Assembly: GCF_000741525.1 (NCBI RefSeq)
Contig: NZ_JGYP01000005.1
Coordinates: forward strand, 209,666 to 273,665
Reading direction: 5' to 3'
DNA length: 64,000 bases
DNA from: Bifidobacterium bohemicum DSM 22767
GTDB taxonomy: Bacteria > Actinomycetota > Actinomycetes > Actinomycetales > Bifidobacteriaceae
Shown here: positions 54,278 to 58,784 of the stretch, piece by piece
How positions within the stretch are numbered: the first letter of the stretch is position 1
Layout of the letters: the number at the start of each line of letters is the position of its first letter
Made by a program: the position numbers and the translations under genes
Notes under the pieces: model-generated
Told to the model about the DNA's origin: nothing
The model's database searches: none
The model's input: only the letters and a program-made list of their open reading frames with translations

Positions 54278-54528
54278 GTTTAGCCGAAAAGTCAATGATG
54301 GCAGCGGTTTCGATGTTATTGACCCTTATCCGTATGGAACCGTATGGACCCTTCAATACGTTCCTCTAACGGTGTGAGTTACTGGACGAGTTTCCTGACT
54401 GTTCGATCCAGATCCTGAGTTCTACTTAGAGGTACAGCACTGATGTTTGCTCTGATGGCATTATTAATAATCAAAGATATGATATTATTTTAATAATTTA
54501 GTTGCTAACTGTGGGGGAAGGGTGGATC

Positions 54529-54807
54529 GTGGCTTCTGAGCGCGTGTTTGTCCTTGACCAGGTGCCTCAGCGGCATCCGAATGTCACCAAAGATGACGCC
54601 GCGACGGCATGGAACCACTGTCTTGCGTGCACTCCCGCGTTCGACAAGGATCCGGATCGCTACATTGCTATCGGCATCGATGGCAAAGGGCGGTATGTCG
54701 AGTTGGTTGTCATTCGCAAACCGGGTGGCTTGTGGCTGGTCATTCATGCGCAAACGCCGCCGGAACAGGACATCAAACGGAGATTAGGTTTTGGAAGGGG
54801 CAATTAA
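54529..54807 (+). CDS. BrnT-like toxin of a type II toxin-antitoxin pair
   Basis: The 92-residue product has the compact layout of BrnT/DUF4258-type RNase toxins: DRYIAIGIDGKGRYVELVVI followed by RKPGGLWLVIHAQTPPEQDI and RRLGFGR. It precedes a ribbon-helix-helix gene with one base of overlap, the brnT-brnA order. The GTG at 54529 is used because GGGGAAGGG lies eight bases ahead. A GTG at 54511 or TTG at 54502 are alternatives. Family assignment is by pattern and context; catalytic residues were not verified. Confidence 0.65.
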   Translation: MASERVFVLDQVPQRHPNVTKDDAATAWNHCLACTPAFDKDPDRYIAIGIDGKGRYVELVVIRKPGGLWLVIHAQTPPEQDIKRRLGFGRGN

Positions 54808-55079
54808 TGAACGATGAGGAACTGTACAGGTTTTTCGGAACGACCGAAAATGATGTGGATCGCACGGTCGACAAGGTGGAGACCGGTGATTATTCTGATT
54901 TTGATTTTTCGCGGGTCATGCAGGGGCGTCCGATGGAGAAGGAGCGGATGGAGACGGTTTCCGCGCCCGTTGCGCAGTCCCGTGTGAAGGCGATGAATCG
55001 TGCTGCGAAGGCACAGGGCATCTCTCGTAGCGAATTCATTCGTCGTGCCATTGATCGTGAGCTCATGGCGTTGTCTTGA
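54807..55079 (+). CDS. Ribbon-helix-helix antitoxin (BrnA/CopG-like)
   Basis: The 90-residue protein ends with PVAQSRVKAMNRAAKAQGIS and RSEFIRRAIDRELMALS, a ribbon-helix-helix DNA-binding domain. The acidic first 50 residues likely wrap the toxin. It overlaps the toxin stop by one base (TAATG) and has AAGGGG upstream. Such antitoxins repress their own operon. Confidence 0.7.
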   Translation: MNDEELYRFFGTTENDVDRTVDKVETGDYSDFDFSRVMQGRPMEKERMETVSAPVAQSRVKAMNRAAKAQGISRSEFIRRAIDRELMALS

Positions 55080-55389
55080 GCAAATAGAGACCGCTGAAAC
55101 GGTTCGGTATGACGGAAAACGGATTGGGATTCTGAGAGGCAGATCAATATTCAGTTCTCGGGTTACCGGCATTTCGTTGAGGCCTGTACACCACCGCAGG
55201 GAGAACATTTCTGACGTAGCGAGATGCGGGGCACGGATCGAACGGGAGTAAATGCCGGGCCCCAAGTGTTTACTCAGTACTTCTAGGCGAGCTTTCACCT
55301 GCCGTTTGTAAAATGTCCTTAGCGTAGTGGCGGTAGAGGGGCAGAAGAGAAAAGCCTTCTTAAACAGCGCTGCCCGCGTCTGAATGCCG
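55080..55389. other. Spacer between the toxin-antitoxin pair and the cas control region
   Basis: No gene is supported. The stretch may include the 3' end of the orphan crRNA-like transcript if termination at 55390 is leaky. No integrase or attachment-site duplicate of the tRNA was found. Confidence 0.35.
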
Positions 55390-55478
55390 AAATGCCATTC
55401 CATTGTAAGTGGAATGGCATTTTAGGCGGTGTTTGCGCAAGTAATTCTTTCAATCCACGCCAAGGTGCACTTGGCGAC
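55390..55478 (-). ncRNA. Candidate crRNA-like cas-regulating RNA (CreR type)
   Basis: Read on the minus strand, 55478-55447 is a 32-nt type I-C-like repeat that starts GTCGC, has a perfect stem CGCCAAG/CTTGGCG and ends GTGGATTGAAAG. The next 24 nt (55446-55423) start AATTACTTGCGCAAA and act as a guide; a hairpin with 12-bp arms (55422-55390) closes the unit. The guide matches 13 of its first 15 nt at 55606-55620, next to a TTC motif, inside the cas3 promoter. Mismatches fall at 6 and 12, positions at which type I interference complexes do not read the guide. The role, repression of the cas operon by its own complex, is inferred. No partner toxin RNA (CreTA) is evident. Confidence 0.55.
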
Positions 55479-55484
55479 AGCTTC

Positions 55485-55513
55485 ATTCTAACCGTTCGTA
55501 CATAAGATATAAA
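55485..55513 (-). promoter_or_regulatory. Predicted promoter of the crRNA-like RNA
   Basis: On the minus strand TTTATA (55513-55508) and TAGAAT (55490-55485) are 17 bases apart. Six bases after the -10 element comes the first G of the orphan repeat at 55478, so transcription would start at the repeat itself. Confidence 0.45.
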
Positions 55514-55602
55514 AAGAGAAATCATAGCCAAGGTAGGGAATTTGGAGGGGCTTTAGAACGTATCAGGGATTTTCTGATGAAAGTTCAGGTTGACAAATTT
55601 GC

Positions 55603-55620
55603 TTCAATTAATTGCGTAAA
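55603..55620 (+). promoter_or_regulatory. Protospacer-like target of the crRNA-like RNA
   Basis: TTC at 55603-55605, the known type I-C protospacer-adjacent motif, is followed by AATTAATTGCGTAAA. Against the guide AATTACTTGCGCAAA only positions 6 and 12 differ. Identity falls off after position 15, which would favour binding without cleavage. Confidence 0.55.
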
Positions 55621-55640
55621 ACCAAAATGTGTTGTATACT
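55612..55640 (+). promoter_or_regulatory. Predicted promoter of the cas operon
   Basis: TATACT at 55635-55640 is a good -10 element, with TTGCGT at 55612-55617 as a -35 element at a 17-base distance. TTGACA at 55590-55595 is an alternative -35 for another start. A start near 55647 gives a short leader before cas3. The guide target at 55603-55620 covers the -35 element. Confidence 0.45.
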
Positions 55641-55673
55641 CCTTTTAAGATGTACTTCATTGAAAGGACAATG

Positions 55674-58052
55674 ATGGGCGAAACGCTGATGGCCAGAAGG
55701 AATGCCGATGGAGCATTGCAGACGTTGCGTGATCACCTTCTTGAGACGGGGCTCCTGGCTGAACGGTTTGAGCACCAATACGGCGATACGGCGCGTTTGA
55801 TAGGCGAAATTCATGATCGGGGTAAGGCCAGCCAACGGTTTCAGCGTTATCTTCTTTTGGGAGAGGGAAAACGTGGTGAAGTGCCGCACGCGAAGCAGGG
55901 AGCCTTTGAGATATCCGAGCTGCAGACCAATGGGGATTGCTTCGCCGTGCTGACGCAGGACATGATCGAAGCCGTGGTGTCCAGCCACCACGGCGACCTT
56001 CCCGATTACCTTGATGTCCAAGGTGAACATGCATTCAGCGACGAAATGTCGGTTGCGTGCAAGGAAGATCCGAAATATAGCTGGCGAGAGATTCGGGAGC
56101 GCTTGCCTGAACTCCGGATTCCCGTGGAAGGGGATTTCCGCCGCAGTCAACAAGACAGCCAAAGGTTAGTCGAGTCGGTCGACGGCTACGCGTCGGGGGC
56201 GTCGTTCGATTTCGCGTTGGGGCTATACGTCAAGTACATGTATTCTCGATTGGTCGATGCCGACAGATTCGACGCCATGAGTTTCGAGAAAGGCATCAAG
56301 CCCTGTGACAGGCGCGTTTCGTGGGATGAATTCATCGCTCACTTGGAAGAGTATATAAAGGGGTTTACGTCCCGCTCGCCGATAAACGACATGCGTGCGC
56401 GTATATCCGAGGAATGCCTTAAGGCTAGTGTCCGGCCGACAGGGATTTATAAGCTGTCGGTGCCTACCGGCGGTGGCAAGACCTTGGCTTCGTTGCGGTT
56501 TGCGTTGCATCATGCCAAGCGCACGGGCAAACAACATATCATCTATGTCATCCCATACTTGACGATCACGGAGCAGACCGTGGCTACATTCCGAGAGGCG
56601 TTGGGTATTTCCGAAGGTGACGATTCGTTGCTGGAGCATTATTCGAGCGTGTCCATTGATGATGATGCCGACGATGAGCGGCGGGAAAATCACAGGTTGG
56701 CGGCAGAGCGATGGGCCAACCCCTTCATAGTGACCACGATGGTCCAATTCCTTGAATCGGTCATGGCTTCGCACGGAACGAAACTGCGGAAGTTCCATAA
56801 TATGGCCAACAGCGTCATCATATTCGATGAAGTCCAATCCCTTCCGCTGAACATGGTCAATCTTTTCAACGAGGTGATCAGTTTCCTTTCCCATGCGCTT
56901 GGTTCCACCATCGTGCTTTGCACGGCGACACAGCCGTTGATAGATACGACGAAGCGTCAGAATCTCGTTTTGGGGGAAGATTCTGATTTGATAAAGGTTT
57001 CCCGAGAGGACATTGCCCAGAGCAAACGCACTGAAATCATCATCTCAAGGGACGAAAAAAGCGTTGAGCAATTCGCTGATGATGTGTACGAGAAAGCTCA
57101 AGAGCAGGGGAATTGCCTGGCGATCGTCAATCTCAAATCGGAGGCGCGGTCCGTTTTTCAACGTCTTCAGCAACTGAACACGGATAAGAAGTTCGAGCTG
57201 ATTCACTTAAGTACATCCATGTGCGGGGCTCATCGCAAGAATCAAATCGAGCATACCAGACAGTTGCTCAACAGCGGCACACCTGTCATTTGCGTAAGCA
57301 CGCAGGTCATAGAGGCAGGGGTCGATATTTCCTTCAAGTGCGTTGTTCGAGCCATGGCCGGGTTGGACAGTATCCTTCAGGCCGCTGGGCGTTGCAACAG
57401 AAGTGGAGAATCCCCAACGCTGCAGCCCGTGTATGTGTTCCCTATTCGTGATGAGCGAGGGCTGGATCATCTTCCCGACATCAAGGACGGCAAGAGGATC
57501 ACCCAAGAACTCGTGCACGATTATCCGACTCGGGACGTGCAGTCGGAATTCATGATGCATGAATTTTACAAACGGTATTTCGCCAAAAAGGACCAAGGCT
57601 CATACATGGATTACGTTCTTCCGGATGTGGGAGGTGGAACGACGGTCTACGATCTGTTGTCGACGAATGAAGCCGGAAGGGGGGCTTTTCGGAACCGTAC
57701 CGGTACCGAATACGGCCGTGTATTCGCGCAGGCTTTTCGGACGGCGGGAAGCAAATTCAAAGTCATCGATCAGCAGACCAAGAATGTTGTCGTCGAATAT
57801 GGCCAGGCATCTTATTATGTAGTTCAACTGCAGGACGATGATTTCAAGGTCAGGCTGGACGCATTGCGCCACTTGCAGGAGTATACCGTCTCTTTGTTCC
57901 CATATGAATATGATAAATTAATCAGTCAGGAAGCGGTGAATCAGGTCAGCGAGGATTTTGATGTTTTCTTATTGAACAGTGATTTTTATTCTGCCGACTA
58001 CGGAGTTGTGCTGGAGCCGCAGGGTCTGCCATTCGAGTTTCTTTGTAGTTAA
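55674..58052 (+). CDS. cas3: CRISPR-associated helicase/nuclease Cas3 (type I-C)
   Basis: Cas3 is recruited by Cascade and degrades target DNA. The 792-residue protein joins an N-terminal HD nuclease (GEIHDRGK with H47-D48, SSHHGD at 103-108, and DADRFD near 195) to a superfamily 2 helicase: Walker A PTGGGKT at 264-270, DEVQ in the DExH box, STQVIEAGVDISF and QAAGRCNRSG. ATG at 55674 sits five bases after AAAGGA; an ATG at 55671 is nearly equivalent. It opens the cas operon. Confidence 0.95.
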   Translation: MGETLMARRNADGALQTLRDHLLETGLLAERFEHQYGDTARLIGEIHDRGKASQRFQRYLLLGEGKRGEVPHAKQGAFEISELQTNGDCFAVLTQDMIEAVVSSHHGDLPDYLDVQGEHAFSDEMSVACKEDPKYSWREIRERLPELRIPVEGDFRRSQQDSQRLVESVDGYASGASFDFALGLYVKYMYSRLVDADRFDAMSFEKGIKPCDRRVSWDEFIAHLEEYIKGFTSRSPINDMRARISEECLKASVRPTGIYKLSVPTGGGKTLASLRFALHHAKRTGKQHIIYVIPYLTITEQTVATFREALGISEGDDSLLEHYSSVSIDDDADDERRENHRLAAERWANPFIVTTMVQFLESVMASHGTKLRKFHNMANSVIIFDEVQSLPLNMVNLFNEVISFLSHALGSTIVLCTATQPLIDTTKRQNLVLGEDSDLIKVSREDIAQSKRTEIIISRDEKSVEQFADDVYEKAQEQGNCLAIVNLKSEARSVFQRLQQLNTDKKFELIHLSTSMCGAHRKNQIEHTRQLLNSGTPVICVSTQVIEAGVDISFKCVVRAMAGLDSILQAAGRCNRSGESPTLQPVYVFPIRDERGLDHLPDIKDGKRITQELVHDYPTRDVQSEFMMHEFYKRYFAKKDQGSYMDYVLPDVGGGTTVYDLLSTNEAGRGAFRNRTGTEYGRVFAQAFRTAGSKFKVIDQQTKNVVVEYGQASYYVVQLQDDDFKVRLDALRHLQEYTVSLFPYEYDKLISQEAVNQVSEDFDVFLLNSDFYSADYGVVLEPQGLPFEFLCS

Positions 58053-58061
58053 GGAGGATTG

Positions 58062-58784
58062 ATGCAAAAGCACAGAAATTCCATTGAGTATCAGGTTTCA
58101 GCGAAGTATGCGCTGTTTTCTGAAGTGATCACCAGGGTTGGAGGTGAGAAGTTCTCGTATCAAGTACCGACGTATCAAGCGCTTAAGGGTATAACGGAGT
58201 CAATATACTGGAAACCGACCCTAATCTGGTACATAGACGGCGTCAGAGTGATGAACAAAATCCAGACGGAGAGCAAGGGAGTGCGTACTATATTATATAA
58301 ACCTAAAAAAAGTGTTCAGAACGACCTTTCCTATTATACGTATCTGAAGGACGTCAGATATCAGGTGCTGGCCCATTTCGAGTGGAATGAGCAGCGTGAG
58401 GATCTGGCGGCCGACCGTGATGAAAACAAGCATCACAACATAGCCAAACGGTGTGTAAACGCCGGCGGGCGCCGTGATATTTTCCTAGGGACAAGGGAAT
58501 GCCAAGGATATGTGGAACCTTGCGAATTCAATTCCGGGGAAGGCTACTATGACGAATACGGCGAAATAAGCCTTGGGTACATGTTCCATTCGTTCATATA
58601 TCCGGACGAAAACCAGAATCATGATTTCATCTCCCAATTCTGGAGACCGCAAATGGACAACGGCATCATAGAATTTCCTCGTCCGGGCAGTCCTGAGCTG
58701 GATGGCAGGGTCATTCGAGAGCATGAGAAGATGAAGCAGTTTGATCTTGGACAAACAATACTTCCAGTGGAGGAGGAGCAATGA
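58062..58784 (+). CDS. cas5c: Type I-C Cas5 (Cas5c/Cas5d)
   Basis: In type I-C systems Cas5c replaces Cas6 as the endonuclease that cuts pre-crRNA below the repeat stem, then stays bound to the 5' handle. The 240-residue protein opens [20 protein letters not shown] and has [20 protein letters not shown], both typical of Cas5d, and a glycine-rich stretch near the middle. ATG at 58062 follows AAGGAGG closely; the site overlaps the cas3 stop. Confidence 0.94.

What the first reader, a model, noticed from the sequence alone, without database searches (positions are those of the whole stretch)
55390..55640. Orphan repeat plus guide aimed at the cas3 promoter: candidate self-regulating CreR RNA of a type I-C system
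A single minus-strand I-C-like repeat (55478-55447) is followed by a guide whose first 15 nt match 55606-55620 at 13 positions. The matched site has TTC, the I-C motif, on its 5' side. The mismatches are at 6 and 12, exactly where type I complexes ignore the guide. The site covers the predicted -35 element of cas3. crRNA-like regulators (CreR, and CreTA antitoxin RNAs) are known from several type I and V systems. A bifidobacterial I-C case with this layout may be new.
Basis: partly seen in the sequence, partly recalled or inferred. Interest (0 to 1): 0.93.

Follow-up and report, generated by a model that had tools for sequence, protein, structure and literature searches.

The report
Self-regulating guide RNA of type I-C CRISPR
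Next to its own CRISPR genes this Bifidobacterium carries a lone CRISPR repeat whose guide matches, beside the TTC recognition motif, the predicted promoter of those same genes, and 22 related loci show a similar match with different but co-changing sequences, so the small RNA likely lets the CRISPR complex turn down its own production.

Summary
A minus-strand orphan type I-C repeat (55478-55447) is followed by a guide matching 55606-55620 at 13 of 15 positions, with TTC before the site and mismatches only at 6 and 12. The site lies 51-65 nt before the cas3 start and overlaps the predicted promoter of the cas3-to-cas2 operon. It is not chance: of 76 type I-C-like cas3 upstream regions examined in Actinomycetota, 23 (in two classes) have an orphan repeat plus a guide matching a nearby site. 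All 21 clear single repeats do, 20 with TTC and 1 with TTT, without TTC being asked for. The 23 seeds are all different, yet 223 of 230 seed cells match. Positions 6 and 12 match no better than shuffled, and matching fades after 14-16. None of the 23 has a second repeat end within 90 nt. Best reading: a CreR-type cas autorepressor RNA of subtype I-C, a subtype for which my (partly capped) literature searches showed no CreR. Transcription, Cas5c processing and repression are inferred. In four loci the target lies far from cas3; in three of these a small ORF lies under it, so some copies may guard peptide toxins instead.

The parts
55447..55478 (-). orphan (single) I-C-like repeat with a 7-bp hairpin and a conserved GTGGATTGAAA 3' part
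   Evidence: stem bases differ from the array repeat but a stem is kept
55412..55446 (-). guide; first 15 nt (55446-55432) match the target at 13 positions
55386..55427 (-). hairpin that follows the guide (core stem 55390-55422, 13 bp); predicted 3' end / terminator, with a weak T-run
   Evidence: 2 of 100 shuffles fold as well; not listed by the terminator tool
55485..55513 (-). predicted promoter of the guide RNA (TTTATA, 17 nt, TAGAAT); TAGAAT ends 6 nt before the first base of the repeat
   Evidence: 9 of 12; 2 promoter-like sites found in the stretch, 0.8 expected; TANNNT box 6-7 nt before the repeat in 13 of 23 loci
55603..55605 (+). TTC motif beside the target (type I-C PAM)
55606..55620 (+). 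target seed: matches guide positions 1-5, 7-11, 13-15; a 35-bp protospacer would reach 55640
55612..55640 (+). predicted cas3 promoter (TTGCGT, 17 nt, TATACT) inside the would-be Cascade footprint
   Evidence: prediction only
55671..58052 (+). cas3, first gene of the operon
   Evidence: TIGR01587, TIGR01596 above cut-off
58059..58784 (+). cas5c, predicted to process the guide RNA
   Evidence: TIGR01876
58781..60754 (+). cas8c
   Evidence: TIGR01863
60751..61611 (+). cas7
   Evidence: TIGR02589
61639..62343 (+). cas4
   Evidence: TIGR00372
62355..63386 (+). cas1
   Evidence: TIGR03640
63399..63689 (+). cas2
   Evidence: TIGR01573
63966..63998 (+). first repeat of the CRISPR array (GTCGCTCCCTTCACAGGGAGCGTGGATTGAAAT); the array runs past the window

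Best explanation
The lone repeat and its guide, which matches a TTC-flanked site in the predicted cas3 promoter, are likely the gene of a CreR-type guide RNA that would lead the cell's own type I-C Cascade to that promoter and lower expression of the whole cas operon. Predicted steps: RNA polymerase starts at the first base of the repeat. Cas5c would cut below the repeat hairpin, leaving a short handle, and the downstream hairpin would define the 3' end. Cascade loaded with this RNA would open the promoter DNA over about 14-16 bp, probably too little pairing to call in Cas3 for cutting, and would block RNA polymerase. More Cascade means more repression. Array crRNAs or anti-CRISPR proteins that occupy Cascade would relieve it. 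Shown by sequence: the anatomy, the TTC, the pairing pattern, and co-change of guide and target in 23 loci. Inferred: transcription, processing, binding, repression and its relief.
For: In all 21 single repeats (at most 1 mismatch to the conserved 3' part, not in an array) found within up to 600 nt upstream of cas3 in 76 loci, the best site by a TTC-blind search scores 10-13 of 13. It is preceded by TTC in 20 and TTT in 1; 7 array repeats in two of these regions, used as controls, score 8-9. Two more loci have a degenerate repeat (L008, L066) with 13 of 13, giving 23 of 76. The 23 seeds (positions 1-5, 7-11) are all different, and 223 of 230 cells match. Position 6 matches in 2 of 23 (shuffled mean 4.5) and position 12 in 7 of 23 (5.6); 13-14 match in 21 and 20, 15-16 in 12 and 11 (shuffled 6.7 and 5.8), 17-18 in 10 and 7 (7.0 and 5.3). 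Guides tried on the other loci reach 10 or more at a TTC site in 5 of 506 pairs and 12 or more in 0 of 506; own pairs reach 10 or more in 22 of 23. Sister loci show compensating changes: window AATTA and B. commune AGTCG in both guide and target. A stem is kept in the window's repeat although its bases differ from the array repeat. A TANNNT box lies 6-7 nt before the GTC of the repeat in 13 of 23, against 40 of 1303 GTC sites of all 76 regions. All seven cas genes pass a family cut-off, with gaps of -4 to 27 nt. The same 1-5/7-11 pairing with TTC was shown by mutation to be needed for CreA repression in a haloarchaeal I-B setting (PMC8501985, passages).
Against: No RNA or expression data were available. 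The downstream hairpin has a weak T-run, the terminator tool did not list it, and folds after the guide beat all 100 shuffles in only 12 of 23 loci (window: 2 of 100 as low). A looser test for a -10 box before the repeat gives 15 of 23 against 1009 of 4600 controls. 5 of 12 bifidobacterial I-C loci of this clade (L007, L010, L011, L012, L013), all 7 of a second bifidobacterial cas3 lineage and 41 of 57 other loci have no such RNA by my test, so it is dispensable. Searched without the TTC, foreign loci reach 11 or more in 12 of 506 pairs and own beats every foreign locus in only 19 of 23 (ties in L040, L056, L058, L072); L040 and L072 score only 10, L058 and L065 only 11, and L072 has an equal second site, so these are not secure one by one. 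In L041, L058, L062 and L080 the target lies 213-406 nt before the cas3 start I chose, so cas3 is not obviously the regulated gene there; L058's cas3 has an in-frame stop and L080's start is uncertain. The best promoter of my hexamer scan does not overlap the footprint in 6 of 22 loci (L005, L006, L035, L041, L056, L058). In the 12 plasmid-borne cas3 loci I fetched, of 40 matches, 11 of them from other phyla, no supported case was found; one 11 of 13 hit in L103 has no real repeat, and in L106 cas3 is not the first gene.
Confidence: 0.86

Rival explanations
1. It is the antitoxin RNA of a CreTA/CrePA-like addiction module: the guide would repress a toxin, not the cas genes.
For: The same architecture with a small ORF behind the target is seen in L058 and L062 (28- and 29-aa peptides, alike by eye) and L080 (32 aa), and a 66-aa ORF in L041 that looks DNA-binding to me.
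Against: In the window only 50 nt separate the target seed from the cas3 start, and an ATG at 55650 is in frame with cas3. B. commune has a similarly short distance. A very short RNA toxin read into cas3 cannot be excluded.
Confidence: 0.06
2. It is a dead fragment of a CRISPR array, or a self-targeting spacer caught from the cas3 promoter, with no role.
For: The repeat shares GCGTGGATTGAAA with the array repeat and one spacer-like stretch follows it.
Against: An acquired self-spacer would match along its full length. Here matching fades after 14-16 nt, skips 6 and 12, and recurs with co-changing sequences in 23 loci. The 7 array spacers in two of the regions do not match.
Confidence: 0.03
3. 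It is a repeat decoy that titrates Cas5c or Cascade (like the phage-encoded Racr RNAs) and the guide is irrelevant.
For: Solitary I-C repeats that inhibit I-C interference are known, one from a B. pseudocatenulatum prophage (PMC10651486, passages).
Against: It sits in the cas locus, and the guide, not only the repeat, keeps its match to the promoter.
Confidence: 0.03
4. The RNA guides Cascade to the promoter but acts as an activator or a roadblock for the divergent guide gene itself, not as a repressor of cas3.
For: In L080 one target overlaps the guide gene's own upstream region.
Against: In the window the footprint would cover the predicted cas3 -35 to -10 and lies 125 nt from the repeat; CreA-guided Cascade at a promoter is reported to repress it (PMC8501985, passages).
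Confidence: 0.02

Closest known systems
CreR, cas-regulating crRNA-like RNAs (reported for types I-B, I-E and V-A)
   Different: Here it is subtype I-C, where Cas5 instead of Cas6 trims crRNA (PMC10013973, passage). None of the 23 has a second repeat end within 90 nt, where the original report (recalled, not held) speaks of mini-CRISPRs.
CreA of CreTA modules, especially one-repeat H. hispanica CreA
   Same: Seed pairing at 1-5 and 7-11, TTC motif, one repeat-like sequence ending in a terminator (PMC8501985, passages).
   Different: CreA represses a toxin RNA; here the target is the predicted cas3 promoter. Pairing here also covers 13-14 and partly 15-16.
Racr solitary-repeat anti-CRISPR RNAs
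   Same: A single I-C repeat directly behind a (predicted) promoter (PMC10651486, passages).
   Different: Racrs are phage or plasmid genes and work by repeat mimicry; here the guide-target match is what is conserved.

Membership tests
CreR | crRNA-like gene: CRISPR repeat with a hairpin followed by a spacer-like guide, outside the array, in the cas locus | tested here: met
CreR | limited, PAM-flanked complementarity to the cognate cas promoter | tested here: met
   TTC, 13 of 15; the promoter itself is predicted
CreR | guide-target match conserved by selection | tested here: met
   23 loci, 223 of 230 seed cells
CreR | mini-CRISPR with two flanking repeats (usual form, recalled; I do not take it as a strict requirement) | tested here: not met
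   0 of 23 have a second repeat end with 3 or fewer mismatches within 90 nt; a one-repeat CreA is described
CreR | effector-dependent repression of cas, relieved by crRNAs or anti-CRISPRs | not testable with these tools
   needs expression assays
CreTA / CrePA | toxin gene under the targeted promoter | tested here: not met
   50 nt between target seed and cas3 start in the window, no room for a protein gene; a tiny RNA toxin cannot be excluded; small ORFs do occur in L058, L062, L080
Racr | solitary repeat on a virus or plasmid, not linked to cas genes | tested here: not met
   cas-linked: the repeat lies 192 nt before the cas3 start

The most novel reading that the evidence does not exclude
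Type I-C CRISPR systems in at least two classes of Actinomycetota are wired to their own Cascade by a family of single-repeat guide RNAs gained or lost several times: most set the level of the cas operon, some have been turned into guards over small peptide toxins placed between the target and cas3, and the 23 natural guide-promoter pairs record which guide positions I-C Cascade reads in living cells.
Probability: 0.45. Interest if true: 0.85.

Novelty: new variant of a known kind. Interest (0 to 1): 0.74.

Why it matters
It would extend RNA-guided autorepression of cas genes to the subtype that the bifidobacterial review reports in the most strains (PMC12838274, passage). It would mean that native I-C tools in some bifidobacteria carry a built-in brake. 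It also gives a natural record of guide reading by I-C Cascade (5 read, 1 skipped, 5 read, 1 skipped, then fading) that can be tested directly with a reporter.

Tried and rejected
Chance: rejected. A second CreR in the genome: a search for a 14-base repeat part with up to one mismatch gave 22 places: the orphan, 20 in arrays on two contigs, and one inside an ORF that looks like murD to me, with no convincing site in its 6,001-base surroundings (best 9-10 of 13). Rfam: only two hits below the gathering score (E 0.45 and 0.46) in the region. Viral contigs: no relative of this cas3. Order-level draw: 2 of 396 genomes matched at E 1e-80, both Bifidobacterium. Plasmids: 12 of 40 matches fetched, no supported guide-target pair. 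L037: a 12 of 13 hit dropped because its repeat-like site has 2 mismatches and lacks GTCG and the first guide base does not match. L007 has a repeat-like hairpin and a guide-like stretch alignable by eye to L009's but fails my test: perhaps a decayed copy, not counted. The target base at position 6 is A in 16 of 23, against 42% at that place behind TTC in the same promoters (binomial p 0.007, ignoring kinship): left unexplained.

Rows dropped before counts: L001, L003, L004, L057, L059, L063, L078 (same places as others) and L022-L032 (weak helicase matches), which located 83; L086, L091, L098, L099, L051 (same places as others) and L049, L050 (85 and 161 nt of upstream DNA), leaving 76 (L090 with 165 nt and L021 with 552 nt kept). 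For the tree L097 and three rows under 350 aa (L012, L058, L080) were dropped, leaving 72, with 21 of the 23 labelled. In one search n was 22; L062 (TTT) was added to make 23.

Full report
What is there. The window (G000:C5:209666-273665) ends in a type I-C operon: cas3, cas5c, cas8c, cas7, cas4, cas1, cas2, each passing an NCBIfam cut-off, with gaps of -4 to 27 nt, then a CRISPR array with the repeat GTCGCTCCCTTCACAGGGAGCGTGGATTGAAAT. Upstream of cas3, on the other strand, lies one orphan repeat, 55478-55447. It shares GCGTGGATTGAAA with the array repeat, while its stem bases differ; a stem is kept. The next 15 bases match 55606-55620 at all positions but 6 and 12, and TTC precedes the site. 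A hairpin follows the guide (55386-55427). The pattern is unique in the genome with up to two mismatches.

Is it chance? For the window alone, 0 of 200,000 random guides from a Markov model of the region reach the same score at a TTC site in the last 150 nt before cas3. The stronger test is other genomes. In 112 genomes of the genus, 41 match the cas3 protein at E 0.001: 12 with 50% or more identity, 7 with 35-39%, and 22 weak (best E 5e-7) that look like other helicases. In a draw of 396 genomes of the phylum, 24 match at E 1e-60, the own genome included. In a draw of 396 from another class, 43 match at E 1e-80, some of them the same genomes as. After removing duplicates and very short stretches, 76 cas3 upstream regions remain: 12 and 7 bifidobacterial, 57 others. 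The phylum name comes from the label of B. commune.

Result. 23 of 76 have the arrangement: 7 of 12, 0 of 7 and 16 of 57; the 16 all lie in the class. Asking only for a single repeat (at most one mismatch in GTGGATTGAAA, not part of an array) gives 21 cases. In all 21 the best site in the region, searched without regard to TTC, scores 10-13 of 13; 20 are preceded by TTC and one (L062) by TTT. The 7 array repeats in L040 and L075 give 8-9. L008 and L066 add two degenerate repeats with 13 of 13. At places unlike a repeat end, 30 of 1,405,929 TTC tests reach 12 or more; next to repeat-like ends at least 19 of 2,450 do, one of them (L037) not accepted. Swapping guides among the 23 loci gives 10 or more at TTC sites in 5 of 506 pairs and 12 or more in none, while own pairs give 10 or more in 22 of 23 (L062 is the exception, having TTT). 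Without TTC the swap is less clean: 81 of 506 reach 10, 12 reach 11, and own exceeds all foreign in 19 of 23.

What the 23 pairs show. All 23 seeds differ, and 223 of 230 cells at positions 1-5 and 7-11 match. Position 6 matches in 2 of 23 and position 12 in 7 of 23; these two were not used for selection and are no better than shuffled (means 4.5 and 5.6). Positions 13 and 14 match in 21 and 20. Positions 15 and 16 match in 12 and 11, above shuffled (6.7 and 5.8; 15 was among the scored positions). Positions 17 and 18, with 10 and 7, are not clearly above it. That is the reading pattern of a type I complex, which skips every sixth base (recalled), recorded by evolution. The same 1-5/7-11 seed with TTC was shown by mutation for haloarchaeal CreA (PMC8501985, passages). 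Sister loci show compensation: window AATTA and B. commune AGTCG, each in both guide and target.

Layout. In the 7 bifidobacterial loci the guide is on the minus strand and the target on the plus strand; in the 16 others it is the reverse. No locus has a second repeat end within 90 nt (at least 4 mismatches in all 23; L040 has array repeats further upstream). My scan finds a hairpin of 8-25 bp after the guide in all 23, but the fold beats all 100 shuffles in only 12 of 23. A TANNNT box ends 6-7 nt before the GTC of the repeat in 13 of 23, against 40 of 1303 GTC sites; a looser test gives 15 of 23 against 1009 of 4600. So transcription is predicted to start at the repeat. On a cas3 tree of 72 rows (21 labelled) the label needs at least 7 gains or losses, so the trait has come or gone repeatedly.

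How it likely works. Cas5c would cut the RNA below its hairpin and Cascade would carry it to the cas3 promoter. With 14-16 paired bases it would sit on the promoter without full unwinding and so probably without Cas3 cutting (inference). Since cas3 heads the operon, the complex would limit its own synthesis, and relief would come when other crRNAs or anti-CRISPRs take up Cascade, as described for CreR (PMC12737573 and PMC13131331, passages; PMC12948488, passage).

Known or new. The reviews name I-B, I-E and V-A for CreR or type I and V-A in general. The primary CreR paper is not held, so a mention of I-C in it or its supplement cannot be excluded. The searches listed no paper whose title or abstract start describes a CreR in I-C or in bifidobacteria; some searches showed only part of their matches (25 of 238, 20 of 211, 15 of 19, 12 of 1,459). 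The 2026 bifidobacterial CRISPR review does not contain the word CreR in its main text. The TTC motif for I-C is from the start of the abstract of PMC8406640 (Xanthomonas, listing). I therefore call it a new variant of a known kind.

Limits. In L041, L058, L062 and L080 the target is far from cas3, and small ORFs lie between; L058, L062 and L080 may be toxin guards rather than cas regulators. L058's cas3 has an in-frame stop and the start I chose in L080 reads only 14 codons, so distances there are uncertain. In L041 the ORF looks like a DNA-binding protein (my reading of the sequence, not searched).

Noticed in passing
L058 and L062, 343 and 201 nt before the cas3 start: Two small ORFs (28 and 29 aa), alike by eye, start just behind the guide's target site, as in CRISPR-guarded toxin modules; possible peptide toxins under Cascade control.
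   Followed up: partly
L080, 406 and 294 nt before the cas3 start chosen: The guide matches two TTC sites, one at its own upstream region (12 of 13) and one (10 of 13) before a 32-aa ORF; possible self-regulated toxin guard.
   Followed up: partly
L041, 285 nt before the cas3 start: A 66-aa ORF that looks like a small DNA-binding protein lies between the guide's target and cas3.
   Followed up: no
window 54502-55079: Small gene pair before the guide gene; the second has matches below cut-off to VapB and BrnA antitoxin models, so a type II toxin-antitoxin pair may neighbour the CRISPR locus.
   Followed up: partly
targets of 23 loci, position 6: The unread base at position 6 of the target is A in 16 of 23, more than expected from the promoters; no explanation.
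   Followed up: partly
L007 upstream of cas3: Repeat-like hairpin and guide-like stretch alignable by eye with L009's, with seed matches lost; perhaps a decayed copy.
   Followed up: partly
G000:C1:578378-579122 and G000:C5:273649-274130: Array repeats of the same type on two contigs (12 and 8 places), perhaps one array split by the assembly.
   Followed up: no
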